A stretch of DNA of 64,000 nucleotides from Melieria omissa (taxonomy: Eukaryota; Arthropoda; Insecta; Diptera; Ulidiidae), in the NCBI GenBank assembly GCA_963971225.1, contig OZ020269.1, positions 90,044,783 through 90,108,782 on the forward strand, read 5' to 3'. Position 1 is the first letter of the stretch. Every line of letters starts with the position of its first letter. This document shows, piece by piece, positions 28,737 to 61,744 of this stretch. The position numbers and the translations under genes are program-made. Under the pieces are notes generated by a model. It was not told the origin of the DNA and did no database searches. It was given only the letters and a program-made list of their open reading frames with translations.

Positions 28737-29016
28737 GGCGCTGGGTGTTGCTGTTAATGTCAGCGACAACAGCGCCACCTGGTATTGGCATTAAAAAATG
28801 TAATTGCCACGAGCGAAAAATTTCTGTAATTAAAAAATCTCAAAGCCATTGGCACTGGATGCGTTTGGCGTAAAATTGAATTTTCTGAAATCAGCCACCA
28901 GCCGACGAGTACGAAAAATTCTGTTTGATTTCTTGGAAGCGGGGAATTTCAGTATTCAATTTCTTGAAGCCAAATTGATGGTTTTTGTTAAAAACAAGAA
29001 ATACTAGGTAGCTCTT

Positions 29017-29694
29017 AGGGGGTATTCTAGTCTAGAGATGATTTTGAGGTGATAAAAAATAATAAAAAAACTAAAAAAATAATAAAATTAAAAAAAAAAC
29101 TAATAATTTGTACCATCCATGTTTTTATCAGTTTTTTACTGATACTTGAAAAATATAAAATGTAAAAATATTGAAAAAAAATTCAAAATTCGAAGTCGGT
29201 AGACGCCGGCAAAGTGGGGATTAAAAAAAGGGGGTCTCCTGGTTGACGTGATTCCAATTCTCCTGGTGATTTGAAACATAAAAATAAAGTTAATTCTTAT
29301 TAAACAAGGATGAAGAATTGTCTGGACATAGCCGATTTAAAAAAATAATAATTTTTGCATAAAATGGCGAGACAACTTTGATAGTATTAAGAAATAAATC
29401 GGTGCATTAGAACTTGATATATCATCTCAACCGTATCGAAAAATGTAGTTTCGAGAAAAACTTGTTTCAAGTTTACAGTCTCAGTTCGGGCAGCCTGAGT
29501 GGCGCGTCCCTAAATTTAACTCTAACTCCGAAAATAATTCGAATTTCCGTAAATCTTCTTAGAGGCTTATTCTTAAAGGTCTAAACTTTGAAAATATGAA
29601 ATTAAAAAAAAAATCAATTTTTTCGAATTTTTTTTCACGAAAAATGAAATTTAAAAAAGTCTACTTTTTCAAATTTCCAAACTAGAATACCCCT
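29017..29694. mobile_element. MITE older than the duplication
   Basis: Bounded by AGGGGGTATTCTAGT and ACTAGAATACCCCT, an inverted pair. The equivalent element in unit 2 (42334-46783) holds a stack of younger insertions. Internal phrases such as GTTTCGAGAAAAAC resemble those of the nested element at 47061-47781, suggesting related families. No coding capacity. Confidence 0.65.
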
Positions 29695-30064
29695 TTAAGA
29701 TGTATGTAGAAGTAATATTTGCTTGAAAATAAAAGTATTAAAGGACAGTACTAATTTATAAAGTCACTCGAACAGTGTTGCCAGATACCTGAAATGACTT
29801 ACTGAATTGAAACTGAAAATTTAAAAATCTCCTAAACATTTTTGTTTATAATTTTTGTCACTATAAGCTAAGAAATTAAACTTCTTATAAAAAATTATAA
29901 AACAAAAATTATTATTATTAAAAATTATAAAATAAAAAATTATAAATTAATATAAATATAATATAAATATAAATATTTATAAAAAATAAGTACATATAAA
30001 AATAATATTAATATATATTTAGTTATTTAATGGCAGCCTTTTTATTGATTCAGCTACAGTTTAA
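29695..30064. other. AT-rich part of the unit
   Basis: Shared with unit 2 (46784-47000 and 48231-48410); contains ATA/ATAAA low-complexity sequence and no gene. Confidence 0.5.
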
Positions 30065-32246: not shown

Positions 32247-33391
32247 CTACTTGCGTGGACACGAGACAGCAGTCCAATGGCAGTACTCGTTCGATTTCGA
32301 GTGCTCTTTGTCGTCGTAGCCGTAGATATAGCGTCGCTCTTTGTACTGGTACAGCTTCGGCGAGGCGCACACCAGATACCCGTCCTCCTCGAGCACCAGA
32401 GCGCCCTCGACGAGCTGCACCGAGAACAGAGCGCCGTCCGGCTGATGGGCCGGCTCCCACGCAGCCACCAACCGGTCGTTCACGCTGTCCATGAACATGT
32501 ACTTGCCGAACCTTCTGCCCTTGAACGCCACCCGGAACGGCAAGTCGCCCGCGGCGGTGGCATTTTCGACCACTTGGAAGTTCTTTAGCCAGGCACCCTG
32601 CGTCATGTCGCCACCCGCCGGCACCCAGTTGAAGATGAAGCGGCGATTTTGATCGTAGAACATGCCGTCCGCCATGTACATGTACTCGCCGTAGCCCTTG
32701 TTGTACAGACAGAACTCGGGCTCGAAGTAGAAGTAGCGCAGCGTGCTGGGCAGCCGATCGATGGCGGTGTCCAGGTCCACACGAAGTCGGCTGTCCAGCT
32801 GCGCGTAGAGCTGATCCTGCTTGGCTCTGTAGAAGTAGTAGCCGACGTTGAGCAGATACTGTTCGTTGATGCCGCCGCGATTGTTGAACTTCGAGTAGAG
32901 ATACAGCTGCGCCTCCAGCATCGATCGGAAGCTGTCCATGTTGCCTTTGCGATAGAACTGCCACAGATAGGCGGCCAGTTTTTCGTGGCTTGTGCGCATG
33001 TAGAGCGCATCGGCGGCCTCCGCGATGATGGCCTTCACCAGGTCCACATTGTACATGGTCATCAGGAATTCGTGAAATGATAACACTTCCTCAATCTTTG
33101 GATGGCACTCGCCAGCAAGCAGTTTGATCAAGATTTTCGAATTTTTCGAAATGACACGCTCGCGCAGCAAATGTAAAGTGTTGCCGTCACTGTCCGCGTG
33201 GCCGATACAGGAACTGCCAAAGTGAGAGAACGATTTTTATTTGAATAAAATTTTTTTTTTAAACTGTACAATACGCACGCTGTATGGTCTTTGGATGGAA
33301 CCACTTCATCCATAAGTGGCAAATGAAAATCCTTTGCCAATGTTGGCGCCAGCAAAGCCAGCAATACAAAGCCCCAAGTTGAAGTGTACAT
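32247..33391 (-). CDS. Secreted two-domain protein, copy A
   Basis: Two exons: exon 1 is 33279-33391 and exon 2 is 32247-33213, joined in phase 2 across a 65-base GT/AG intron (33214-33278). The 359-residue product begins with a hydrophobic signal peptide (residues 1-19, cut probably after TLA), so secretion is expected. About 54-180 looks helical (LRERVISKN, AAYLWQFYRKG, YLLNVGYYFYRAKQD); the rest is strand-rich with related motifs (GEYMYMADG, GKYMFMDS, GYLVCASP), as in a beta-trefoil. Helical domain plus trefoil is the layout of lepidopteran 30K storage lipoproteins; that link is by eye and unproven. Six cysteines (40, 74, then FCLYN, VCASP, YCHW, SCP) are shared with gene C. It is about 94% identical to copy B. 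The start is the only ATG that gives a signal peptide. A hemolymph, reproductive-tract or storage role would be a guess. Confidence 0.88.
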
Positions 33392-34623: not shown

Positions 34624-35931
34624 ATGCAGAAAATGCCTTGTGAGTGCGGGCAAAAAGTGGATCGGAACCAAGCTAAAGTGCAGTGGGGCAAATGTAAAGA
34701 TTTGTTCCACTTGAATTGTGTTGGTCTTTTGCCTGCTGATTTTGAATTTTTGCTTAATTCTGGCAAACAATTTTTTTGCAAAAACTGTGTTACTGTTCGC
34801 CGTAAATCCATCTGTTCTCCCCCTCCTCCCGTGATTCGGGAAGAGAGAGGAACATCTATAAACGTAGCTTCAACTGACTCGCCAATTCCAACCCAACAGC
34901 GAAGTGGAAACAAAAACGCAACTGCTCAATCGCAAAAACAATTGCTTAAACCTGAGGCCGCTCAAAAGCGTTGCGACAATAAAAATGAGTCTAACTCTCC
35001 GGTCTCTTTACTAACTGTTCTTAATGAAATTGATGTTCTTAAATCCGTACATGCTAGTGCTATTTCCGCGATTACTGCTCTTCGTACTGATAAGCAGCTT
35101 CTGATCGGCAAAATTGAAGAGTTGCGTGTGGAGGTTAAAGCCATTGCATAAACTCCACACCGAGGAAGCCTCTGCCATTGCGCTGCTAACTGCTGAGATC
35201 AAAGATCTTCGTGCCAGCGCAGTTACATGTGGGTGTCACAACAAAAACAACAAAAGTGAAAACAACAACACGATGCGTCAAACTATCTCTTCGCTGCCTG
35301 CACCTGGTATAACTGCAGTCTCGCCTCCCCTGCTGTTTTTGATGCTAATCGCTCTTGCTCAACTGGTAATGATCATTGCTTCTCCTCCCATCATTCGCCT
35401 GGTGCTCGTCTGGTACGTACAACCGACCCACGGAACTCTGCTGCTGCAACGAACACTGTTACGTCGGTTGTTACCTCCGCTTCGAATGCTGTTGTTGCTT
35501 CGCCTGCTTCCTACGCTAATGTCGCTCGCTTGCTTGTTCCGGCTGAGAAAAATAACAATCCAGACGAGCCTGCTGCCTCAGTTTCTGTTGCTTCGATTAC
35601 TAGCAAACCCAGCAAGAAATTGAGAGCCCAAAGTATTGTCGGCTGTAATACGAGTGACGAATTAGATGTCGTACATAGAGTGAAGTGGCTACACCTATCA
35701 TCCTTTAAGCCCTCAGTCACCGCGGAAAACATCGTGGCGTACGTCTCGAAACACTCCTCCATTGAGGCAAAAATGATCTCCTGCTACAGGCTTGTCAAAA
35801 AGGATGTGGAAATAGGTTCTCTGAAAAGTGTGACGAAACCCTACTTAACTCATCGATCTGGCCTGCTGATGTACGAGTTCGCCCGTTTAAGTTTTTTCAG
35901 CAACCAGCGAACGAGGAAGGAACCACTTGAG
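34624..35931 (+). pseudogene. LINE ORF1, broken (PHD finger and RRM-like)
   Basis: The first 175 codons encode a PHD-type zinc finger (CECGQ, GKCKDLFHLNCVGL, FFCKNCV), then a charged linker with a coiled-coil-like end. After a frameshift near 35150 the frame goes on with LHTEEASAIALLTAEIKDL; after another near 35500 it reads VKWLHLSSFKPSVTAENIV and CYRLVKKDVE, a domain usual in such ORF1 proteins. A third shift near 35840 leads to the natural stop at 35929. ORF1 proteins bind element RNA; this copy is non-functional. Confidence 0.75.
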
Positions 35932-38813
35932 TGCCGTTCCTCATGCCGCCGGTCCTCCTCAGACTAAGTGTCTAAAAATCTATTTTCAAAATGTTTCTGG
36001 CTTGCGTACTAAGTCCAAATCTCTCTTCGATATGAGTTCACACTTGGACCATGACATTTTTGTACTGATTGAGACGTGGCTGAATTCGGATTTCTATGAC
36101 AGTGAATTTTTCGACGGCAAATTATACAACGTTTATCGGAAGGACCGCGACGCTGAGAAAACGGGTTACTTGAGAGGTGGTGGAGTGCTAATCGCTGTGC
36201 AGCGTCGCAACCGCTCATCATTAGTGCACTTGGTTACCGAAGACTCCCTTCTGGATCAACTATGCTTCCTGGTGCATGGAATCTCTAAAATTTATATATC
36301 TGCTTCGTACATTCCTCCGGCCAGTACCGATGCATTGTACAAGGCGCACGTTGATAATATTCAGGCTTTAGTCTCCCCTCATGATGGCTGCAACTTCTGT
36401 ATTCTTGGCGACTTCAACCTATGCAATGTAGAATGGTCATACTTAGATAATAAGTTTGCTTTATTTCCTAAAAACATTAATAGTTTCGCCGAATCCTACT
36501 TAGTTGACAGCTTTCTAAGTCTGGATCTTATACAAATTAATTGCTTAAAAAATAATTTACTTAGAATTCTCGATCTTGTCTTCATAAATGATATCATGAA
36601 TTTTGTATTGAACGAATGCCTCGACCCATTGTCAGGGTCTGGCTTACACCACGTACCGCTTGTTATTCTATTAGAGTTCTACGACTTCAAAGGTCTTAGT
36701 GGTAACAATCAATCTAATAACTTTTGCTTTAAACGCTGCAATTTTGATGTTGTTAATGAGGAAATTTCTGCTTAAGATTGGGATTCGTTATTTGCTCATG
36801 CTAGTGTTGCCAAATGTTTTGATATTTTTAAATTTAAGATTAGTGATATATGCATTAGGAATATACCACGTACAATTAAGAAATGCTATAGTATTCCGTG
36901 GTACACCAAAGAGTTAAAAAAGCTAAAGAATTTGAGAAATAAATTTTATAAAAAGTTCAAATCTTCAAACTCTCTACTTTATAGAAATTCCGTCGCTATT
37001 CGATGGAGTTTAAATCCTTGAGTAAAGTCCTTCAACGTAATTATGCTCGTAAATTCGAGTCAGATATTAAATCAAATCCGAAGGCATTCTGGCATTATGT
37101 CAAGTCAAAAAAGTCGTGCTCAAGTATTCCGTCTGAAGTGTTTTACAATGGTAAGCATGCTTCTTCCCCCCTGGAAGCAGCTAATCTCTTTGCGGATTTT
37201 TTCCGAGCTAATTTTGAACCTGCCAGAACTAATTCAGTGGATGTCAAACCGAACGTTAATTCCCCCATTAACTTTGGTTCGCTCTCTCTATCCCTTGACG
37301 ATGTTTTGGATGGTATTCGGTTTATCAAAAACTCTTCTAATATGTATAATGATGGTCTGTCTCCTTAACTCCTTAGGAATTGCTCTGCTTTTGCCTATCC
37401 ACTTCTTTTAATTTTCAGTAAATCCCTCCAAACAGGTGAATTTATTGATGCTTGGAAGGTTACTTTTATTACGCCCATTTTCAAAAGTGGCAATAAGAAC
37501 GACATTTCGAACTATAGGCCTATTTCAAAACTGACGGTGGTCTCAAAGTTATTTGAATACATTGTCAAACAAAAATTGTCTTTTACAGTAAAGCGTTTCG
37601 TTTGCATTAACCAACATGGCTTTATGACCGGCAGATCAACAGTCACAAACCTGGCGGTTTTCTCGGAATTTTGTATGTCCGCTTTTAATGATCGTCTTCA
37701 AGTTGATACTGTATATACTGACTTCTCGAAAGCTTTCGACAAAGTGAGTCACTCTATCTTAGTTTCAAAACTGGCTAGTTCGGGATTTCATTCCACTTTC
37801 TTACAGTGGGTTAAATCGTACCTCTCCCTCCGTAACTGTGCAGTTGTTGTTGACAACACTTACTCCCAATCCTTTGTTGCCTCATCCGGTGTCCCCCAAG
37901 GAAGTATACTTGGTCCCTTGCTCTTTGTCATTTTTATCAATGACATCTCTGAATGCTTTAAGTTTTCGAAATTCCTCCTGTATGCGGATGATTTGAAAAT
38001 CTTTAATCGTGTTGCGAGCCCTTCTGACTCGGCTAAGCTCCAATCTGATCTCAACAATGCAGTTGCCTGGTGTCATCAAAATCAATTGCTCCTACCATAA
38101 ATATTAGTAAGTGTTCTCATGTGTCCTTCTCCAAATCCCGTTCCGTAATTCCTACTTTGTATTTCATTCATGGTTCGCGATTAAAAACTTCCTATGAAAT
38201 CTCTGATCTTGGTGTAGTTTTTGACTCCAAATTTTTATTTCATAGTCACTTAAATTACACAATTTCTAAGTCCTATTCTTTACTAGCCTTCATTCGGCGC
38301 TTTGGTTCTGATTTCACTGACCCATATACTCTGAAATTACTTTACAATTCTCTGGTACGGTGTAAGTTGGAATACGACGTCTTTATTTGGAGACCGTATC
38401 ATGTTTGTCATATCAATAGACTCGAACGCATTCAGAAATCGTTTGTACGATTTGCATTGAGATCGTTGAATTTTGTCGATCCTATTCCATCTTATGATGC
38501 ACGATGTATGCTAATCAACTTCAAATCGCTACACAGTAGCAGGGTTATCCTTTCACTTTCCTTTGTTTTCGACATTATTAGTGGAGTGATTGATTCCCCA
38601 TGCCTGCTTGAGCGCATTTCCTTTCATATTCCTGCTAGAAGTCTTCGGAGTAATGATATATTCTTACTTGATTGCGTCAGAACTGTGTACGCTTCCCATG
38701 CTCCCATATATAGAGCTTTGAAAGAACTGAATTCGCTCTCAAATTCTTTGGCAATTGACTTTTCAATTTCTAAAAATAGCTTTAAGCTAATATTAAATGA
38801 ATTAATTACATAG
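35927..38813 (+). pseudogene. LINE ORF2, broken endonuclease-RT
   Basis: The start overlaps the end of ORF1. The APE-type endonuclease is clear (IYFQNVSGLRTKSK, IETWLNSDF, RGGGVLIAV, LGDFNLCNVEW). Stops at 36773 and 37366 and frameshifts near 37010 and 38100 break the frame. The reverse transcriptase is easy to follow: ITPIFKSGNKNDISNYRPIS, QHGFMTGRST, YTDFSKAFDKVSH, SSGVPQGSILGPLLF and the catalytic YADD (37981-37992). The C-terminus (38070-38813) is one open frame. The few disruptions point to a moderately old insertion. Confidence 0.85.
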
Positions 38814-41585: not shown

Positions 41586-43731
41586 ACTGATAACTTTCAT
41601 TCGCGTCAATTCAAGAATTTCCGAAACATTTAGTGATCAGTTGTTTATAAAATGTAAATGACATTTTTTTGGGCTTATCAAATAATGATTTATCATATTT
41701 ACTACGTAAATATGAACGCTCAATTTTGTTCTCTCTACAAATGAAAACCAAGACGATTATGTTAAAGAGCTAGAATCTCAATTCCATTCAAACAATACAT
41801 TGATATAATGTTAAAGTTAAATAGTTATCTGTCATTACGCTCTCCGCAACAACTCAGCTCAACTCATTGAGCTGAATTTCACTATTCAACCAGATTTTTC
41901 TTTTTTCGAAAAAAATACAAAATTTATTAAGTGATGAAAATTATTCTATACGTATAAGTATTATTGTTTCGATTCGATTACTCCATCTGTACGTTTGTTA
42001 ATAGATATAACTTTTGAAAAAGTTGAGAAATTGCAATAAAGTTGGGTGTTGGGCGCTGGGTGTTGCTGTTAATGTCAGCGACAACAGCGCCACCTGGTAT
42101 TGGCATTAAAAAATGTAATTGCCACGAGCGAAAATCTTCTGTAATTAAAAAAATCTCAAAGCCATTGGCACTGGATGCGTTTGACGTAAAATTGAATTTT
42201 CTGAAATCAGCCACCAGCCGAGGAAGGCGAAAAATTTCGTTTGATTTCTTGGAAGCGGGGAATTTTCAGAATTCAACTTCTTGAAGCCAAATTGATGGTT
42301 TTTGTTAAAAACAAGAAATACTAGGTAGCTCTAAGGGGGTATTCTAGTCTAGAGGCTCGATGTTGATGTGATAAAAAATATTAAAAAAAATAAAAATAAA
42401 ATTAAAAAAAAAACTAATAATTTTTACCATCCATCTTTTTATCAGCTTTTTACTAATACTTGAAAAATATAAAAATGTATAATACTGGAAAAAATTCAAA
42501 ATTGAAGTCGGTAGAGGCCCCAAAGTGGGGACTCAAAAACCAATTCTCCTGGTGATTTTTAACATACAAATTAGGTTAATTCTTATTAAACAAGCATGTA
42601 GAATTGTCTGGACATAGCCGATTTGAAAAAACAAATTTACACAAAATGGCGTCTTTTTGAAAATAAAGGTACAGTGCACTCGCGAATAGAGTCCGACCGA
42701 TTAATCGGCATCGGCATCGGCTAGTATCGGCCAATAAAATTGGTATCGGCATCGGCTAGTATCGGCATCGGCCAAAAAAAAAAGAATCGGCATCGGCTTC
42801 GGCCTTTTTTGGCCGATGCCACATCGGCTTTTTTTGGCCGATGCCACATCGGTTTTTTTTGGTCGATTTTCCTGCTTTCATTTCTTGTTTGTTTTTATTT
42901 GCAGCTGAATCGCACTGTCTTTTTCATATCTCGCTTTGTATATTTATTACATTTTTATTATACGTTACAACCCAGTGTTGCCTGATTAGGGGGTTTCTCC
43001 TTAGATTTGTTTGGATTTTATGACAAATACTTAAGGGGACAATATTTTACAGATATTTTTAACCCGGCATCGGTGTGGTGGGGTATACCATACCCCAGAG
43101 GTTGTATTTTTGTAAATATTACGCCTATCAGTTTTTTGTGGGCACTATCGCTTCTAGTAGCTATTTATAACAGTCCAACCTTACAGATTTGCTATCCAAA
43201 AACAACTTGAGTTTTACCAGATTTCAGTCACATCCCGCTAAAGTTCATTGGGGTATGACATACCCCACCACACCAATAACGTAACTTTTTGTGTAAATGA
43301 TTTTGAATTCAAATTGATACTTTTGATGGTCTAGTAGTCATCGATTTATTCAAAAACTCACCGTACGGAAACATAAGACGCAAATACGAACTGTCCAACT
43401 GCTACGTGCAAGAAAAGCTCCCAGTTCAGTATTCGCATTATATCGCCGTAGAAAACGAATGTCGTATGTTCCATTGAACTTAATAGCACATACGACAACC
43501 GTTTTCATCGTATCATATATTACAAAAAATATCATTATTTTTGTACATCATCATGATTCTGTCATTCCTTGAAATAATGCGAAGCTATACCAAAACGTCA
43601 TCAGTACAGCACACAATGTTCGGTTTGCCTGAGAGCAAAAACCTTATACATCTTGCAAAAAATGCGCTAATTTGGAGACCCTGTATTTCGCTTCTCTTTC
43701 ACCGTAGCTACCGAAAATTTTATGTCACATA

Positions 43732-45035
43732 AGGCTTGTCCACGAAATAATTTTTACATTTTCTATTATTAATAGCTACTAAATAAAATATTGAACTAAT
43801 GTTTGTGTGAGTATTTATTATCTCTTATAACTCAAAGTTTGTGATAATGTACAAATATTTTAAAGTTCAATTGGATTTCTTACAAATCTACGTATTTTTG
43901 CTTTCAATCCCCTCATCAAATGTTGCACACCAGATTTTCCAATTTTTTTGGCCATACTGTTCCACTTTTTTATAAAATCAGTCTTTCCCTTAGCACGTTT
44001 TTTATATTTCAGTAAGTTTCGTTTCATTATTGCCCAAAATCGTTCGACTGGCCGAAGCTGTGGGCAATTTGGGGGATTGTGATTTTTCTCAACAACACGG
44101 ATCGTATTCCTTTGGTACCACTCTTTGACAATTTCTGCATAGTGGACTGTTGCTAAGTCTGGCCAAAATAAAGGTGGAACAGCGTGCTCTCTGTACAATG
44201 GCAGAAGTCGTTTGTTGAGACATTCCTTCAAGTAAATTTTACTGTTAAGACTGCCAGTTGTAACAAAAGGACGAGTGTATTTGCCACAGCTGCATATGGC
44301 CTGCCAAACCATATACTTTTTACCATATTTGTCCATCCGTTTATACTTGAACCTTTTCATAACGCTACCCTTCAGGTATGCTGTGTAATATCCTCGACCT
44401 GGAAGCTGTTTGAAATCTTCTTTGACATACGTTTCGTCATCCATTAACACGCAGCCTTTAAAACGACACAGATCATTCGATAAACGTTTTCGGGCTCGAT
44501 TTCTGGCACGCTTTTCCACTTCGGAGTTACGATTTGGCACTTTTTGAACAACGAAAGATTTGAGCTCGTAGTGTCTTTTAATTTTCGCAATGTATGATTT
44601 CGAAACTTCGAATTTTCGTGGCAAATCTCGTAAAGATTGGTTTGGATTTTTTTCCAGAGAAACTTTCACCTTACGAGCTATATCTTTATAGACGAAACCT
44701 TTTTTTCGTCCGGCTCCGAGGATACGGGATATGGACAGGTCCTTCTTGTATTTAATTACCACATTTCTAGCTGTTGCCCTGGAAACTTTGGCTAGTCTTC
44801 CCAACAATGCGTACGAAGCCGTTGGATTTTCGAAAAAGTGGGCAATTATTTTTTGTCGAATTTTCTCTTCTTTAGATGCCATTTTGATTGAATCACTTTG
44901 AATTTCAAAATACAATTGACCACTAATAGCTGAAATTTTACAGATTCTGAAAAGCGAATTTTTTTTTTAGAAATTTCGGTGCTTACTATACTTTTTTTCG
45001 TTTTACATTGTAAAAGTTATTTCGTGGACAAGCCT
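43732..45035 (-). mobile_element. ITm (DD37E-type) mariner, intact
   Basis: Innermost layer. Inverted repeats of about 27 bases starting AGGCTTGTCCACGAAATAA with one mismatch, flanked by TA (43730-43731 and 45036-45037). The 1304-bp element has one open transposase gene. It is the only transposon here that looks complete. Confidence 0.93.
43860..44882 (-). CDS. DD37E-type Tc1/mariner transposase
   Basis: 340 residues from the ATG at 44882, which has a good AAAATGG context; the frame upstream of it starts only at a TTG. The N-terminus (about 18-110) has two helix-turn-helix parts (ALLGRLAKVSRATARNVV, DLPRKFEVSKSYIAKIK) separated by a basic hook-like GRKKG. The catalytic domain has D149 (MDDETYV), D242 (FWPDLATVHYA) and E280 (PQLRPVERFWAIMK) by hand count, leaving 37 residues between the last two. 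That spacing is the mark of the ITmD37E group first described in mosquitoes. The enzyme cuts and pastes DNA at TA sites in the nucleus. No stop or frameshift is seen, so it could be active or only recently silent. Confidence 0.92.
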   Translation of the reverse strand: MASKEEKIRQKIIAHFFENPTASYALLGRLAKVSRATARNVVIKYKKDLSISRILGAGRKKGFVYKDIARKVKVSLEKNPNQSLRDLPRKFEVSKSYIAKIKRHYELKSFVVQKVPNRNSEVEKRARNRARKRLSNDLCRFKGCVLMDDETYVKEDFKQLPGRGYYTAYLKGSVMKRFKYKRMDKYGKKYMVWQAICSCGKYTRPFVTTGSLNSKIYLKECLNKRLLPLYREHAVPPLFWPDLATVHYAEIVKEWYQRNTIRVVEKNHNPPNCPQLRPVERFWAIMKRNLLKYKKRAKGKTDFIKKWNSMAKKIGKSGVQHLMRGLKAKIRRFVRNPIEL

Positions 45036-46254
45036 TAACTACATGTATGTCGTTTTTAAAACAGACTATGGTTTTTGGAAAATTATACAATGTAATTTTT
45101 TTAAACCCCATTTTATGAAGTCAACCTATAAATCTCAGTATTTTTCGTTTATTTTTCTTATATTTGTTATTTTCTTTTACAAATTGCTTGCACATTAAAT
45201 TTTTTTGCATTTTCTTACGTAAAATTAAATGAGGAATAATATGTAATTGCTATCTTTTATATTTGTGTTGTTTCGTGGGGTTGGTGCTATATAAAGTTTT
45301 GGGATATGTCATACCCCACCACACCAATAACGTAATTTTTTTTCACCACACCAACGCCGGGTTAATCTATTTTTGCTACATCAACACCTTGTTCAGCTAT
45401 ATTGGCTATTGGGTCTTTTGTTAATTGCTTGTGCCAAATAGAATGAGCAATTTTCATGAAATATTAATTTTATATGTTATAAATTTGGGGGAAATTTTAG
45501 TTTAATGTATTTAAATTCTGAATTTTCTTGTAATTTTATTTAGTTTTTAGTTGTTTATTTTCTCGTTTTTGTTTGTTAATTTGCGATGAATGTGATGAAA
45601 TGTACTATATACGTAATAGTTCCTTTTGTTGTTTTATAAAATAAGCTGTGTTTTTGATTGAATTCATTTGTGTTTTTTTTCTATGGAATCGGCATCGGCA
45701 TCGGCATCGGCATCGGCCGATTTTCGGCCTTTTGACCGATTAATCGGCATCGGCTGAGAATTGGCCGATGCCGATTAATCGGCATCGGCATCGGCCAAAA
45801 AATTTGGAATCGGTCGGACTCTACTCGCGAAAACGTGAACTAATAAAAACCAAGGCTGTTCACGTTTACGAGATTGTTCAAGTTTACGATTGTTGAAAAA
45901 TACGTTTCTTTTGTGTAAAACTACTTATAAAAAAGTTAATTGAATTAAGTTTTATAACAAAAAGTTAAAAAGGGACGAGTATATAAACATTTAAGGTTGT
46001 GGGCGATGAAGTATTTGCGAAAAAGATACACAACAGGGTGTACACATTTTTGGAGCCTTCAAGCATTGTTCACGTTTTAGATTATTCAATAGGAAAAAAA
46101 GTGTTTACGCAATCGAGTGTTCACGTATTCGAATGTTCACGTTTTCGCGAGTGCACTGTAATTTTTTGCCTTCTTTTTTCAAGTTTGGAAATTTTTTAAA
46201 AACAGCAAAAAAAAAAATTGAAAAACCCCCAACGTCGAGACAATTTTGATAGTA

Positions 46255-46491
46255 CAGTCGTGTCTGGGTATAGTGAACCCCTATATAGTGAACACTTCGC
46301 TATATTGAACACCCAAATTCTGACATCGAGCCTCTAAATATGGAACAACATTTTCAAGCAAAAAACAAAGAGTGTTTTTTAAGCAAATAAATCGAGTTTT
46401 TGAACAAAAATGTTAACCTCGATATAGTGAACAACCTCAATATTGTGAACAGCCCTTGCAATAATTAGTTCACTATATCCAGATACCACTG
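46255..46491. mobile_element. pogo-like MITE, 237 bp
   Basis: TA on both sides (46253-46254 and 46492-46493), ends CAGTCGTGTCTGGGTATAG and its near-complement CTATATCCAGATACCACTG. Unit 1 has the empty TA at about 29388. TATAGTGAAC-type repeats continue inside. Confidence 0.88.
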
Positions 46492-47004
46492 TATTAAGAG
46501 AGTCTGTTACAAATTTCAAGTAAACCGGCATTAGAACTTGAGATACCATATCAACTATATCGAAAAAAATAGTTTCGAGAAAAACGTGTTTAAATTTACA
46601 GTCTCTTTTCTGGGTGTGGTGAGTCTGTCTGAGTGGTGCGTCACAAAATTAACTATAACTCCTAAAATAATTCGAATTTCCGTAAATCTTCTTAGAAGCT
46701 TATTCTCAAAGGTTTGAACTTTGAACATATGAAATTTTTAAAGTATGATTTTTCGAATTTCTAGACTAGACCGCCTACCGCCTAAAAATTTATGTAGAAG
46801 TAATGTTTGCTTGAAAATAAAAGTATTAAAATCAATAGAAATCGTGCGACCTGTTGCACAGTAATAATCTGAAAAGTCACTGGAACAGTGTTGCCAGATA
46901 CCTGAAATGACTTACTGAACTGAAACTGAAAATTCCTCCAAAACTTTCCTAAACATCAAAACAAAAATCTCCTAAACATCTTTGTTTATAATTTTTGACA
47001 TTAA

Positions 47005-48226
47005 CCCATTAAGCCCTGAGCGTTGCGTTTGCGCAACGTTTGGGAATTTCGCTACATTAAGGGGGTGTTCTGTAGTAACAGCTCGTTTTCTTAGGTGTTT
47101 TTTGAAATTCTACTGTGAAGTAACTATTCAATTTTTTTTATGCGGTTTTTTTTCAATGCTTTATTATACTTTTAACTACAAAATTCAGTATAAGGTTTGA
47201 AAAAATATTGATTCGTTGCTGCACTGCAGCGCCGCAAAGTGATGCCCTCCAAAAAAACATGCGTTGACGGTTCAGACGATTGCTCCAGTCTGAAACATGG
47301 AAATCGGAAAACTTTTTTTTTGTTGTAATCTATATGAGTGCGATTATCGTCCGACGGGAGCTTTTTTTGTTTTTCATCAAAATTCTCAAAATGGCGCGAC
47401 TTGAAAGTAAAAAATTTTTTTTGTCCCATTTTTTCAAATGAAAAAACATTTATTTAACACTAACTAATAACAAAATCGAAAAAAACGCTCGTCGGACGAT
47501 AGCGACAACTTTTAGAAACATTTAAAAAAAAAAATTATCAAAATCCGTCTACTCAATCATTTGTAATCGTGTGAACCAGTTCGAAAAACATGGTTTCGGG
47601 AAAAACGCGTTTAAAGTTTTTTGTTCTGTGGAAATTCGGCGCGTGACGAAACCTCCTTTACAAATGACTTTCCGGTCCGAATTCATCAAAGACCTTTTTT
47701 TATACGATAGATAACAACATTACCTGTTGAAAAATGCAAAAAAAAATCGATTTTTTGACAATTTTACTACAGAACACCCCCTTAAGTCATTCATAAAGAT
47801 ATAAGACTTGAAAATGGGTAGAATTGGATTCGAATTGATCATTTTAGATTCTGCCATACTCAAATTTCAAAATTTTTTAAATATTCATATCTTTTTTTCG
47901 ATCCAAAGTCAAAGGTTTTTTTGGGGAATTTTTTAAATTCAATTAAAAATACTTATTCTTCAAACCTATCAAAATCCCTTTGTGGGCTGCATTTTGCAAT
48001 GCTAAACTATTTAAAAATACATTTTGAAAACAATTTTTTTTTTTGAAATTTTAAGTTTTGTATGTGACTAAGGCCCAATATTGCGTTGCGCAACGTACCC
48101 TCCTGGTTCAGGGGGTGGGGGTATGAATTATTTGCTTGATTTTTTTTCTTGATTAGGTCTATTACTAAGATTGTGTAAAATTTTATGGAAATCGCACAAG
48201 CCTTTCTGGGGTCAGGTTTTAATGGG
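47005..48226. mobile_element. piggyBac-like MITE with nested element
   Basis: TTAA on both sides (47001-47004 and 48227-48230), ends CCCATTAAGCCCTGA and TCAGGTTTTAATGGG. Absent from unit 1 (near 29862). The phrase TTGCGCAACGT occurs near both ends (about 47029 and 48085). Confidence 0.83.
47061..47781. mobile_element. TTAA-flanked MITE nested in another
   Basis: Ends GGGGGTGTTCTGTAGTAA and TTACTACAGAACACCCCC are perfect 18-bp inverted repeats, flanked by TTAA (47057-47060 and 47782-47785). The inside contains GTTTCGGGAAAAACGCG, like the MITE at 29017-29694. Confidence 0.85.
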
Positions 48227-48887: not shown

Positions 48888-49313
48888 CATAGTGAAATTA
48901 ATAAAGTGTGCCAGATAGCAGGAACTCTCTCTTCATCGTACACTTATTTTTTGACAGTGAATGTCATTTTGCTGCCAAATATCATAATTCATAACCCGTC
49001 TGTGCTGTATGAAAAAATTTCAAAATAAATTGTTGTTTGAAAATACTTTCTGCACCAAAACCGACAACAAAAACGCATCTAGATGCCAGGAAAAACGTGC
49101 TGTATCTGAAAAAAACGCACGGCAATGCAGTTCCTATGTTTTTCTAACATCAAATATATATATTTCTGGAGTACTGAAAGGAAATTTTAAATTTAACGAC
49201 AACAAAAATAAAGGTTAATCGAACTGACACAAATAAATTGACACATTGACAATTGCTACTCAGAGAAATAAGTGTACGTCATCTACCTGGTACACTTTAT
49301 TGATTTCACTATG
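48888..49313. mobile_element. Non-autonomous element with 8-bp target duplication
   Basis: Inverted ends CATAGTGAAATYAATAAAG (27 bases, two mismatches) and exact flanks TGTACAAT (48880-48887 and 49314-49321). Unit 1 has the empty site near 30620. The 8-base duplication suggests hAT, although the first bases differ from the hAT end consensus. Confidence 0.78.
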
Positions 49314-51488: not shown

Positions 51489-52592
51489 TCAAGTTATCGG
51501 GCTATCGAATGCTGCCTTGTAATCGATGAAGAGATGGTGTGTATCGATTTGGTTCTCATGGGTCTTCTCCAGGATTTGGCGTAGAGTGAATATCTGGTCG
51601 ATGGTGGACTTACCAGGTCTAAAGCCACACTGATAAGGTCCAATCAGCGCCTTGGCGAGTGGCTTTAGTCTTTCACATAATACGCTCGTCAGGACCTTGT
51701 ATGCAATGGGAAGTAGGCTGATACCCCTGTAGTTGGCGCATATTGTTGGGTCGCCTTTCTTCAGCACAGGACAAAGGGCACTGAGGTTCCAATCGTTGGG
51801 CATTCGTTCCTCCAGCCATATTTTGCAAATGAGCTGATGCATGCACCCAATCAGCTCACCGCCGCCGGCCTTGAACAATTCAGCTGGTAGCCCATCCGGC
51901 CCTGCAGCTTTGTTGTTCTTGAGTCGCTGGATAGCGACCCGGACCTCGTCATGGCTGGGCGGTGGCACATCCACACCGTCGTCGTCGATTTGTGCCATCT
52001 GGACATCTTCACCACTGGCGGTATTGTTCCCTTCGTCGCCTGCGAGCAGCTTGGTGAAGTGCTCCTTCCACAACATCAGCACACCCTGCGCATCCGTAAC
52101 CAGATCCCCGTTTTCGTCTCTGCAAGAAGATGCCCCAGACTTAAATCCTTCCGTGAGACGCTTAACTTTTTGGAAGAATTTTCGGGCGTCATTCCTGCTC
52201 CTGCACTCCTCGATTTCCTCACGCTCGCGCCTTTCTTGCTCCCGTTTCTTGCGTCTAAAAAGGCACCTCTCTTTCTTCCTCTCCTCCCGGTATTTTTCTG
52301 TAACGGCTCGCAGGGCAGCCGACTGCAGGGTCTTCTTGTAGGCAGCATTCTTCGCTGCAGTGGCTGCGCGACACCCTTCATCGTACCATTGGTTTTTTGG
52401 TGGTGGGCGTCGAAAACCAAGGACATTTTCTGCGGCGGCGCGCATAGAGTGGGATAAGTGAGCCCATAATCCGCCGATGTCATCAGGTGGAGAGGGGGAG
52501 CGACCGAGCTGGTTGGAGAGTTGAGCGGAGTAGGCTTCGGCTACCGTCGTATACGTCCTCGAGGTTCGCATAGAAGGCATCCTTGGCCGCAT
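51489..52592 (-). pseudogene. RTE-like linker and RT N-terminal part
   Basis: Reads AVTEKYREERKKERCLF, RNDARKFFQKVKRLTEGFK, LWKEHFTKLLAGDEG, AIQRLKNNKAAGPDGLPAEL, CPVLKKGDPTICANYRGISL, YQCGFRPGKSTIDQIF and HHLFIDYKAAFDS, the fingers and first palm motif of the reverse transcriptase. It stops at 51489 because of a short deletion before the next segment. Confidence 0.85.
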
Positions 52593-54771: not shown

Positions 54772-55914
54772 CTACCTGCGTGGACACGAGACAGCAGTCC
54801 ACTGGCAGTACTCGTTCGATTTCGAGTACTCTTCGTCGTCGTAGCCGTAGATGTAGCGTCGCTCTTTGTACTGGTACAGCTTCGGCGAGGCGCACACCAG
54901 ATACCCGCCCTCCTCGAGCACCAGAGCGCCCTCGACGAGCTGCACCGAGAACAGAGCGCCGTCCGGCTGATGGGCCGGCTCCCACGCAGCCACCAACCGG
55001 TCGTTCTCGCTGTCCATGAACATGTACTTGCCGAACTGTCTGCCCTTGAACGCCACCCGGAACGGCAAGTCGCCCGCGGCGGTGGCATTTTCGACCATTT
55101 GGAAGTTCTTTAGCCAGGCACCCTGCGTCATGTCGCCACCCGCCGGCACCCAGTTGAAGATGAAGCGGCGATTTTGATCGAAGAACATGCCGTCCGCCAT
55201 GTACATGTACTCGCCGTAGCCCTTGTTGTACAGACAGAACTCGGGCTCGAAGTAGAAGTAGCGCAGCGTGCTGGGCAGCCGATCGATGGCGGTGTCCAGG
55301 TCCACACGCAGCCGCCCGTCCAGCTGCGCGTAGAGCTGATCCTGCTTGGCTTTGTAGAAGTAGTAGCCAACGTTGAGCAGATACTGTTCGTTGATGCCGC
55401 CGCGATTGTTGAACTTCGAGTAGAGATACAGTTGCACCTCCAGCATCGACCGGAAGCTGTCCATGTTGCCTTTGCGATAGAGCTGCCACAGATAGGCGGC
55501 CAGTTTTTCGTGGCTTGTGCACATGTAGAGCGCATCGGCGGCCTCCGCGATGATGGCCTTCACCAGGTCCGCATTGTACATGGTCATCAGGAATTGGTGA
55601 AATGATAACACTTCCTCAATCTTTGGGTCGCCCTCGCCAGCGAGCAGGTTGATCAAGATTTTCGAATTTTTCGAAATGACACGCTCGCGCAGCAAATGTA
55701 AAGTGTTGCCGTCACTGTCCGCGTGGCCGATACAGGAACTGCAAAAGTGAGAGAAAGATTTTTAGTTGAATAAAATTTTGTTTAAACTGTACAATACGCA
55801 CGCTGCATGGTCTTTGGATGGAACCACTTCATCCAAAAGTGGCAAATAAAAATCCGTTGCCAATGTTGGCGCCAGCAAAGCCAGCAATACAAAGCCCCAA
55901 GTTGAAGTGTACAT
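54772..55914 (-). CDS. Secreted two-domain protein, copy B
   Basis: Exon 1 is 55802-55914 and exon 2 is 54772-55738, joined in phase 2 across a 63-base GT/AG intron (55739-55801). The 359-residue product has the same signal peptide core as copy A and the same helical plus strand-rich layout. By hand count it differs from A at 23 residues, 4 of them in exon 1, with only about eight silent changes in the coding region. Cysteine 74 of A and C is glycine here, while residue 111 is cysteine (R in A), so the total stays even. At several sites (for example DGRLR, LYRKG/LYHKG region, CQWTAV) B keeps the gene C state, so A has changed more there. Function unknown; probably secreted into hemolymph or a gland lumen. 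AATAAA is at 54620-54625. Confidence 0.88.
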
Positions 55915-56677: not shown

Positions 56678-57602
56678 CCCTTATGTGTGTGATAGGGTAC
56701 CCGGGTACCCAAATCACTTTTATATCGACATTTTATACACTTGCGGATAACCTAGAAAGATGAATCTTCATGACAACTCCCAAAATAGTATTCTGTCTTT
56801 ATTTTTCGGGGGTTTAATTCCATTAATTTTATTTTGGAGGGTGTGGCACAACATTTTACTTTTTACACCCTTACCCGTGTGCTGGGGTACCCGGGTACCC
56901 CAATACATTTTATATGGAGTTGCATAGATTTTTCCTGTAAGTGAAACTTTCAACGAGAACAATCACTCAATCGATTTTGAGGAAATTAAAAAAAATGATT
57001 TTGGTTACATAAATTCTGAGATGGTCAGTTTCTATGCAACCCGCAGGCTCGGCGTCAGAAGCTTCTATTGCTGCGTCGTTAACTGATGGAATATGTTCAT
57101 CTTCGCCTTCGGAAATGGAAAATTCTTCATCACTTTTACTCTCGCACATTATTTCTTGAACTTCAGCTGAGATAAATCTTTCACAACGAGCTCTTGCTGA
57201 ATAAGAACTCATTTCCGAAGTGGTTTAGCTCTTTCACACTACAATTGAAACTAATTACTAATGATTAATTCATTTGTTACAAAGTTCAAATATAAAAAAT
57301 TTCCGCGGGGAATGACCTTCCATTGAAATTTACAGCAGCGTATGAATGGTATTCCCCTTTTTATGAAAGCGGGATCCAAAATTGCACAAAAATTCATTAC
57401 TGGAAATTAAAAAACAAGTTTACAAGTCATTTTTTGTAACAAGGGAAATCCCAAAATGTACTTTTGTATTACTGAGAGCTTTAAAACCAGTAAAATTTCT
57501 TACAGTGCGAACAAAAAGTGAGACATTTTCATACAATTTGTACTGGGGTACCCGGGTACCCTATCACACGGATAAGGGTGTTTTTTTCAGCACACACTAG
57601 GG
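56678..57602 (-). mobile_element. Internally deleted piggyBac-like element
   Basis: TTAA on both sides (56674-56677 and 57603-57606), with CCC/GGG at the ends; unit 1 has the empty site near 34226. The palindromic phrase GGGTACCCGGGTACCC occurs near 56696, 56886 and 57545, linked to CACACGG/CTATCACAC repeats. A remnant of transposase start is inside. Confidence 0.82.
56967..57212 (-). pseudogene. Possible piggyBac transposase N-terminal stub
   Basis: An 81-codon frame starting MSSYSARARCERFISAE and rich in Asp/Glu/Ser (SKSDEEFSISEGEDEHIPS) resembles the acidic, disordered N-terminus of piggyBac transposases. The catalytic domain is absent. The assignment rests on composition and on the surrounding TTAA ends. 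Confidence 0.5.
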
Positions 57603-60527: not shown

Positions 60528-61660
60528 TTACAGTGGACACTCGACCGCTGTCCACTGGCAGAACTTATTCGAGGCCGTGTGCTCTTTGTCGTTGTAGCCG
60601 TTGATGTAGCGCCGCTCATGGTTCTGATCCAGCCTGGGTGAGGCGCACATCAGGTACCCGTTCTGTTCCAACACCAGTGCGCCCTCCACGTACTGCAGCG
60701 TCCACAAGGCGCCAGCCGGCTGGTAGCCGGACTCCCAGGCCAGCAGCAGATTGTCGTTGTCGCTGTCCATGTACAAATATTTGCCATACTTTTTGCCCTT
60801 CAGCGTCACCGTGTAGGGCAGTCCGCCCCTATGCGCATTGCTTGCGTTCGTTGGCAGCTCGAAGAGCCTGAGCCAGGCGCCCTGCGACATTTCGCCGCCC
60901 GGTGGCACCCACGTGAACATGTAGCGCCGATTGCTGTCGAAGAAGATGCCCTCAGCCATGTACAGGTACTCGTCGTAGCCCTTGTTGAACAGGCAAAAGT
61001 TGCTCTTGAAGTAGAAGAAGTGCAGTGTGCTGGGCAGCCGATCGATGGCTGCGTTTAGGTCCTCACGCAGCCGCCCGTCCAGCTGCGCGTAGAGCAGATC
61101 CTGCTTGGCTTTGTAGAAGTAGTAGCCCACGTTGAGCAGGTAGGCATTGTTGATGGTGCCGCGCTTGGTGAATTTCGCATACAGATACAGCTGCGCCTCC
61201 AGCATCAGCTTGAAGCTGACCATATCGCCTTTGTGATAGAGCTGCCACAGGTAGGCGGCCACTGCTTCGGTGCTCTGAATCGTGTAGAGCATGTCGATTG
61301 CCTCGCAGTAGATGGCCTTGGACAGCGCCTCGTCGTAGACGGTGGTCAGGAAGTTGGCAAACTGCAGAATTTCCGTGTCCTTGGGAAAGCAGTCGCTATT
61401 GAGGAATTTCACCAGCACTTTGGCGTTCTTCGAAACGAGCCGCTCGCGCAGCTTGTTGAGTATGCCGACGCCTACTTCGTCGCTGCCCGAGCATGTGCTG
61501 CAAGAAAATATTTGCAGCCATGATTGCAGCATTCGAGCAGAGAGTGCACCACTTACCTGGAGCTGCCCATAATTTGATGTTCGAGTATATCGTCCAGAGA
61601 CGCAATGGAGAGCGTGAGCAATGCCAAGAACACAACACACATGCCCGACGTGTTCATCAT
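60528..61660 (-). CDS. Secreted two-domain protein, gene C
   Basis: Exon 1 is 61557-61660 and exon 2 is 60528-61497, joined in phase 2 across a 59-base GTAAGT...TTGCAG intron (61498-61556). The 357-residue product starts with a signal peptide (MMNTSGM then VVFLALLTLSIA). It shares the layout of A and B, with about 60% identity by eye: LRERLVSKNAKVLVKFL, AAYLWQLYHKG, LEAQLYLYAKF, YLLNVGYYFYKAKQD, IDRLPSTL, FCLFNKGYDEYLYM, GKYLYMDSDND, GYLMCASP, FCQWTAVECP. The same intron position and phase show common descent. It lies outside the duplicated units, so it probably represents an older split. The long frame running upstream through the intron to 61742 is an artefact of read-through. Confidence 0.9.
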
Positions 61661-61674
61661 GCGAGCCAAAGCAA

Positions 61675-61707
61675 GACTGGTCAGCGCAGCGACTCTGGAT
61701 TTTTATT
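61675..61707 (-). promoter_or_regulatory. Putative core promoter of gene C
   Basis: AATAAAAAT on the minus strand (61699-61707) is followed about 25 bases later by an initiator-like CAGTC (complement of 61675-61679), giving a 5' UTR of only about 18 bases. Confidence 0.45.
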
Positions 61708-61744
61708 GAATCGTAATAAGAAATGTATCCCCTAAAAGACATAG

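What the first reader, a model, noticed from the sequence alone, without database searches (positions are those of the whole stretch)
42672..46158. Four transposons nested like Russian dolls
A DD37E mariner (43732-45035, TA) lies in a piggyBac-like element (43063-45361, TTAA), in a hAT-like element (42687-45823, 8-base CTCGCGAA), in a pogo-like MITE (42672-46158, TA); all of this is inside an older MITE shared with unit 1. Each layer shows its own family-specific target duplication, so the order of events is fixed by the sequence.
Basis: seen in the sequence. Interest (0 to 1): 0.8.

Follow-up and report, generated by a model that had tools for sequence, protein, structure and literature searches.

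The report
A nest of transposons jumping together
Four mobile DNA elements really are stacked inside one another here, and the inner three have fused into one vehicle that has jumped as a unit to several places in the genome with a transposase gene on board.

Summary
All four layers lie at the stated coordinates, with inverted ends and exact target duplications (TA, TTAA, CTCGCGAA, TA). Each inner layer also occurs alone in this genome: 32 of 40 scored mariner copies, 21 of 30 piggyBac-like loci examined and 8 of 8 fetched non-composite hAT-like copies. The solo piggyBac- and hAT-like copies run unbroken across the predicted joins.

The interpretation needs a correction. Eight sites, this window included, hold the same three inner layers nested at the same bases: hAT-like(piggyBac-like(mariner)), about 3.1 kb. 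Each has its own exact 8-base duplication around the hAT ends, and their flanks share nothing (56 comparisons, 0 matches). The eight differ by 0.285% on average, and their mariners form one clade (99/95). So the nest was built once and then spread as one hAT-type unit; only its landing in the pogo-like MITE is private to this window. A ninth copy is a 1,330-bp deletion derivative with its own duplication.

All eight keep an open 340-codon DD37E mariner frame. The hAT transposase source was not sought, and outer-MITE copies could not be searched because the tool stayed busy.

The parts
43732..45035 (-). DD37E mariner, 1304 bp, TA duplication at 43730-43731 and 45036-45037; innermost layer
   Evidence: 40 scored full-length or near full-length genome copies, 8 composite and 32 solo
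43860..44882 (-). mariner transposase frame, 340 aa, D149-D242-E280 (37 residues between the last two)
   Evidence: Pfam DDE_3 E 5.2e-7; predicted fold closest to Mos1
43063..45361 (.). piggyBac-like non-autonomous element, 993 bp of its own, TTAA at 43059-43062 and 45362-45365
   Evidence: 21 of 30 loci examined are solo copies, 21 of 21 span the join, 18 of 21 with TTAA on both sides
42687..45823 (.). hAT-like element carrying the two inner layers: the 3.1-kb mobile composite; 834 bp of its own; duplication CTCGCGAA at 42679-42686 and 45824-45831
   Evidence: same composite at 8 sites with 8 different exact 8-base duplications
42672..46158 (.). outer pogo-like MITE, 342 bp of its own, TA at 42670-42671 and 46159-46160, struck by the composite 15 bases inside its left end
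   Evidence: absent from the other 7 composite loci
42335..46776 (.). older TTAA-type MITE around everything, shared with tandem unit 1 (29018-29694); right end diverged, boundary approximate
46255..46491 (.). sibling pogo-like MITE, 237 bp, TA duplication, beside the nest and absent from unit 1
28737..29839 (.). unit 1 counterpart without the nest
   Evidence: 772 of 876 aligned bases identical once the two pogo-like MITEs are taken out

Best explanation
A mariner inserted in a piggyBac-like MITE that itself lay in a non-autonomous hAT-like element. This happened once. From then on the hAT ends carried all three as one ~3.1-kb cargo-bearing element: a hAT-type transposase supplied in trans (inferred, not found) cut at the TAGAGTCCGACCGATT ends and pasted the whole nest at new sites, making an 8-base duplication each time. 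At least eight full copies and one internally deleted copy exist. One of them landed 15 bases inside the left end of a pogo-like MITE, which had already entered unit 2 of a tandem gene duplication inside an older TTAA-type MITE. Shown: the layers, duplications, solo families, identical nesting points, distinct composite duplications, unrelated flanks. Inferred: the hAT transposase, how copy number rose, and that this window was not the birthplace.
For: 40 of 40 scored mariner copies were classified: 8 lie at the same base of the piggyBac-like layer in the same place of the hAT-like layer, 32 are solo (31 with TA on both sides, the last has its left end outside the stretch fetched). All 8 composites have an exact private 8-base duplication: CTCGCGAA, GAAAATGT, CTGATATC, TGCTGCAT, GTCATATG, ATTATCAT, AAATTTTT, AAAGTGCA. 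56 flank comparisons among the 8 gave 0 matches at E 1e-5. Pairwise mismatch is small in every layer: 0.27, 0.29, 0.16, 0.49, 0.48% from left to right, 0.285% overall. Mariners of the composites are one clade, 99/95, against 21 solo copies; within composites 99.84% identical, between 98.7%. The deletion derivative in L033 has its own duplication CATCGTGC. Solo piggyBac-like and hAT-like copies prove the joins.
Against: No hAT transposase with these ends was searched for or found. Only 40 of 148, 1411 and 961 first-look candidates were scored, so composite numbers are lower bounds and composites with a damaged mariner could be missed. The duplications do not follow the Hermes-type nTnnnnAn consensus (4 of 15 by eye). 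One solo hAT-like copy (L075) has unequal flanking octamers, another (L076) lacks a clear left end. In the global alignment the deletion derivative differs by 2.95-3.25% from the others; I take this for misalignment at the deletion, since BLAST pieces are 96.9-100%, but did not test it. The IQ-TREE bootstrap had not settled.
Confidence: 0.93

Rival explanations
1. One reading: four successive independent insertions at this very place, outermost first.
For: Nesting and duplications in the window alone fit it. If this site was the birthplace, the outer MITE was hit by a plain hAT, then by the other two, and the composite later left for seven other sites.
Against: The same three-layer nest sits at 7 other places. 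The window's mariner is nested inside the composite clade with L009 rather than at its base, weakly (86/81).
Confidence: 0.06
2. The eight composites are segmental or tandem duplicates of one locus.
For: Such duplication does occur for some solo copies here: L030 twice, L061-L063, L045/L046, L048/L053/L054, L051/L052 have the same flanks.
Against: The eight have different octamers and flanks of 435-763 bp with no match in 56 comparisons.
Confidence: 0.01
3. Hotspot nesting: mariner and piggyBac-like elements hit the same bases in hAT-like copies independently.
For: TTAA and TA targets are site-restricted.
Against: Identical points in both layers in 8 of 8, one mariner clade, and low divergence in all layers.
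Confidence: 0.01

Closest known systems
Transposed TE nests proposed in Drosophila melanogaster (PMC1794594; passages and section 16 read)
   Same: The authors argue that some repeated nests (four jockey2->Cr1a copies) moved as pre-formed nests and note that DNA elements can transpose with extra sequence between their ends.
   Different: There the case rests on absence of tandem-duplication signs and concerns two retroelement layers; here three DNA-transposon superfamilies are nested and eight private hAT-type duplications mark the jumps.
Three nested transposons in the pink bollworm cadherin allele r15 (PMC6522560; passages read)
   Same: Three-layer nest with target duplications in an insect.
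   Different: A single site with a MITE, an RTE and a SINE; the passages I read do not report the nest itself moving.
DD37E/Mosquito (MS) family of Tc1/mariner (PMC10379824; abstract and passages read)
   Same: About 1.3 kb, about 340-aa transposase, DD37E, short TIRs, TA; reported only in invertebrates, mostly arthropods.
   Different: Placement against DD37E/TRT and DD37E/L18 was not tested here.
Use of nested insertions to order TE activity (TinT PMC3014933, TRANScendence PMC5657132; search listing only)
   Different: This locus shows a trap for that logic: a travelling nest repeats one nesting event at many sites.

Membership tests
Tc1/mariner, DD37E (MS-like) | TA duplication | tested here: met
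   window, and 31 of 32 solo copies
Tc1/mariner, DD37E (MS-like) | DD37E triad in a ~340-aa transposase | tested here: met
   340 aa, 37 residues between D242 and E280; closest solved fold Mos1
Tc1/mariner, DD37E (MS-like) | length ~1.3 kb, TIR 19-51 bp in most | tested here: met
   1304 bp; 27 bp without the TA, one mismatch
Tc1/mariner, DD37E (MS-like) | falls in the MS clade, not TRT or L18 | not tested
   no reference sequences were at hand
piggyBac superfamily | TTAA target | tested here: met
   window and 18 of 21 solo loci
piggyBac superfamily | ends 5'-CC (recalled), not the RR ends of Kolobok (PMC6004289, passages) | tested here: met
   CCCGGC...GCCGGG
piggyBac superfamily | piggyBac transposase | not testable with these tools
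   993-bp element, longest stop-to-stop frame 81 aa; no autonomous partner was sought
hAT superfamily | 8-bp duplication | tested here: met
   8 of 8 full composites, the derivative, and 6 of 7 solo copies with both ends
hAT superfamily | short TIR of the YARNG type (recalled) | tested here: met
   TAGAG...
hAT superfamily | nTnnnnAn target (Hermes-type, PMC2803484, passages) | tested here: not met
   4 of 15 octamers by eye; a trait of some hAT families only, so 'hAT-like' is used
hAT superfamily | hAT transposase | not tested
   834-bp element without it; partner not searched
pogo-like MITE (outer layer) | TA duplication and CAGT ends (CAGT recalled) | tested here: met
pogo-like MITE (outer layer) | shared ends with a pogo transposase-bearing element, other genome copies | not tested
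   genome search did not complete

The most novel reading that the evidence does not exclude
The composite works as a carrier: a non-autonomous hAT moves an open mariner transposase gene to sites its own ends did not choose, while three sets of intact ends (TA, TTAA, 8-base) leave it open to three different transposases. It would be a new element family born from a nest, already budding off a deletion derivative that keeps only the hAT ends, that is, a route by which new MITEs form from nests.
Probability: 0.3. Interest if true: 0.6.

Novelty: new variant of a known kind. Interest (0 to 1): 0.45.

Why it matters
Nested transposons are routinely read as a local stack of separate events and used to date families. 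This case shows, with target duplications at eight unrelated sites, that a three-superfamily nest can itself become a mobile element. Counting each copy as independent nesting would repeat one event many times. It also gives a concrete system for asking whether a mariner gene carried by another element is still under selection, and how MITEs arise from larger cargo-bearing elements.

Tried and rejected
Independent hotspot nesting and segmental duplication were considered and rejected. Kolobok was considered for the TTAA layer and set aside for its CC ends. Looking for un-nested copies outside the genome led nowhere: viral-contig scans for the hAT end and the outer end gave 0; the piggyBac-like end gave one 21-base chance match in a 57% GC contig; the outer end in prokaryote genomes gave one 19-base chance match in a Mycobacterium; the mariner alignment gave 41 pattern matches and 0 relatives in viral contigs. 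A PDB sequence search with the transposase gave 0. The outer MITE and its sibling 46255-46491 look alike in orientation sis- (Smith-Waterman 32 against a shuffle maximum of 30 in 300; the other orientation 27 against a maximum of 34): suggestive only. A statement that this is unpublished is not made; nothing describing this composite turned up in the search listings, in an open-access library.

Full report
What was claimed and checked. All ends and duplications are where stated, and the TA and 8-base cases exceed simulated windows (the 4-base test missed the TTAA element because of its 7-base seed). The layers' own lengths are 1304, 993, 834 and 342 bp. Only the mariner carries a transposase-sized frame; the longest stop-to-stop frames in the other three are 81, 87 and 57 aa.

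Empty site. The window holds a tandem repeat: 28737 onward (unit 1) and 42052 onward (unit 2). With the two pogo-like MITEs taken out, 772 of 876 aligned bases agree. The nest and the sibling MITE 46255-46491 are absent from unit 1. The older MITE is in both. About 97 bp next to the outer MITE are also missing from unit 1, without an evident duplication; whether unit 1 lost them or unit 2 gained them cannot be told here.

Genome copies. The own genome is 490,334,835 bases in 164 contigs. Mariner query: 148 candidates, 40 scored, all 40 classified: 8 composite, 32 solo. piggyBac-like left half: 1411 candidates, 40 scored, 30 loci fetched: 9 with hAT and mariner sequence (8 full composites and one deletion derivative) and 21 solo, of which 21 span the join, 19 match 1-993, 18 have TTAA on both sides, with 17 distinct flank pairs. 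hAT-like right arm: 961 candidates, 40 scored; 8 are the composites by position, 32 are others at 88-98%; I fetched 8 of these 32, and 8 of 8 run straight across the piggyBac join with one TTAA and no piggyBac match; 6 of 7 with both ends have exact octamers.

The composite moves as a unit. Each of the eight full composites (3084-3157 bp) is bounded by hAT ends and a different exact octamer. Left-left and right-right flank comparisons gave 0 matches in 56. Mean pairwise mismatch is 0.16-0.49% per layer and 0.285% overall. The composites' mariners are one clade in a tree of 29 copies (8 composite, 21 solo; 99/95; bootstrap not settled). A ninth copy, 1330 bp, keeps hAT left end, piggyBac left half and mariner bases 1-222, fused to the last 54 bases of the hAT right end, with octamer CATCGTGC on both sides; it lies near L010 on contig C3 in the opposite orientation.

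State of the cargo. The mariner frame is open over 340 codons in 8 of 8 composites, against 14 of 21 solo copies tested. Relative to the solo majority the composite majority differs in 13 codons, 11 of them changing the residue, which is what drift without selection would give. One of the changed residues stands in a column where 14 of 14 compared relatives agree. So the gene is open but may be impaired; I call it a transposase gene on board, not an active one. The catalytic triad and fold are kept (mean pLDDT 84.8, pTM 0.58; best match Mos1, E 1.9e-10, TM 0.52).

Reading. The nest was assembled once, in the order hAT-like, then piggyBac-like, then mariner, and then spread as one hAT-type element. 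One copy hit the left terminal repeat of a pogo-like MITE here. The hAT transposase is inferred. The octamers do not follow nTnnnnAn (4 of 15 by eye), so the hAT subfamily stays open.

What is new. Moving nests had been proposed for Drosophila melanogaster (PMC1794594, section 16 read). Here private target duplications at eight sites document it for a three-superfamily nest. I file it as a new variant of a known kind.

Noticed in passing
window 47005-48226: Second nest: a TTAA element (CCCATTAA ends) holds a TTAA element 47061-47781 (GGGGGTGTTCTGTAGT ends), which holds a TA-flanked inverted-repeat stretch 47347-47499. Unit 1 has a matching empty site near 29850 (66 of 74 aligned bases).
   Followed up: partly
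window 48888-49313: hAT-like MITE with exact octamer TGTACAAT; no counterpart between the flanking stretches of unit 1.
   Followed up: partly
window 29018-29694 and 47061-47781: The older MITE and the 47061 element have similar ends (GGGGGTATTCTAG / GGGGGTGTTCTGTAG) beside TTAA; possibly one TTAA-type family, Kolobok-like or piggyBac-like. Overall alignment is weak (321 of 627).
   Followed up: partly
L010 and L033 (G000 C3:75472568-75476770): A full composite and its deletion derivative lie within about 4 kb in opposite orientation.
   Followed up: partly
L061-L063 (C4:67343185-67352762), L030 (C162): Solo mariners in tandem arrays: three copies 4137 bp apart and two copies 4717 bp apart with the same flanks.
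   Followed up: no
window 32247-33170, 54772-55695, 60528-61742 (-): Tandem gene copies; two of the three (32247, 60528) tested gave no Pfam match, and 60528 no PDB sequence match.
   Followed up: no
window 35927-36775 and 51489-52592: Endonuclease-like and reverse-transcriptase frames of LINE-type elements (Pfam).
   Followed up: no
window 56694-57562: Long near-palindromic ends AGGGTACCCGGGTACCC.
   Followed up: no
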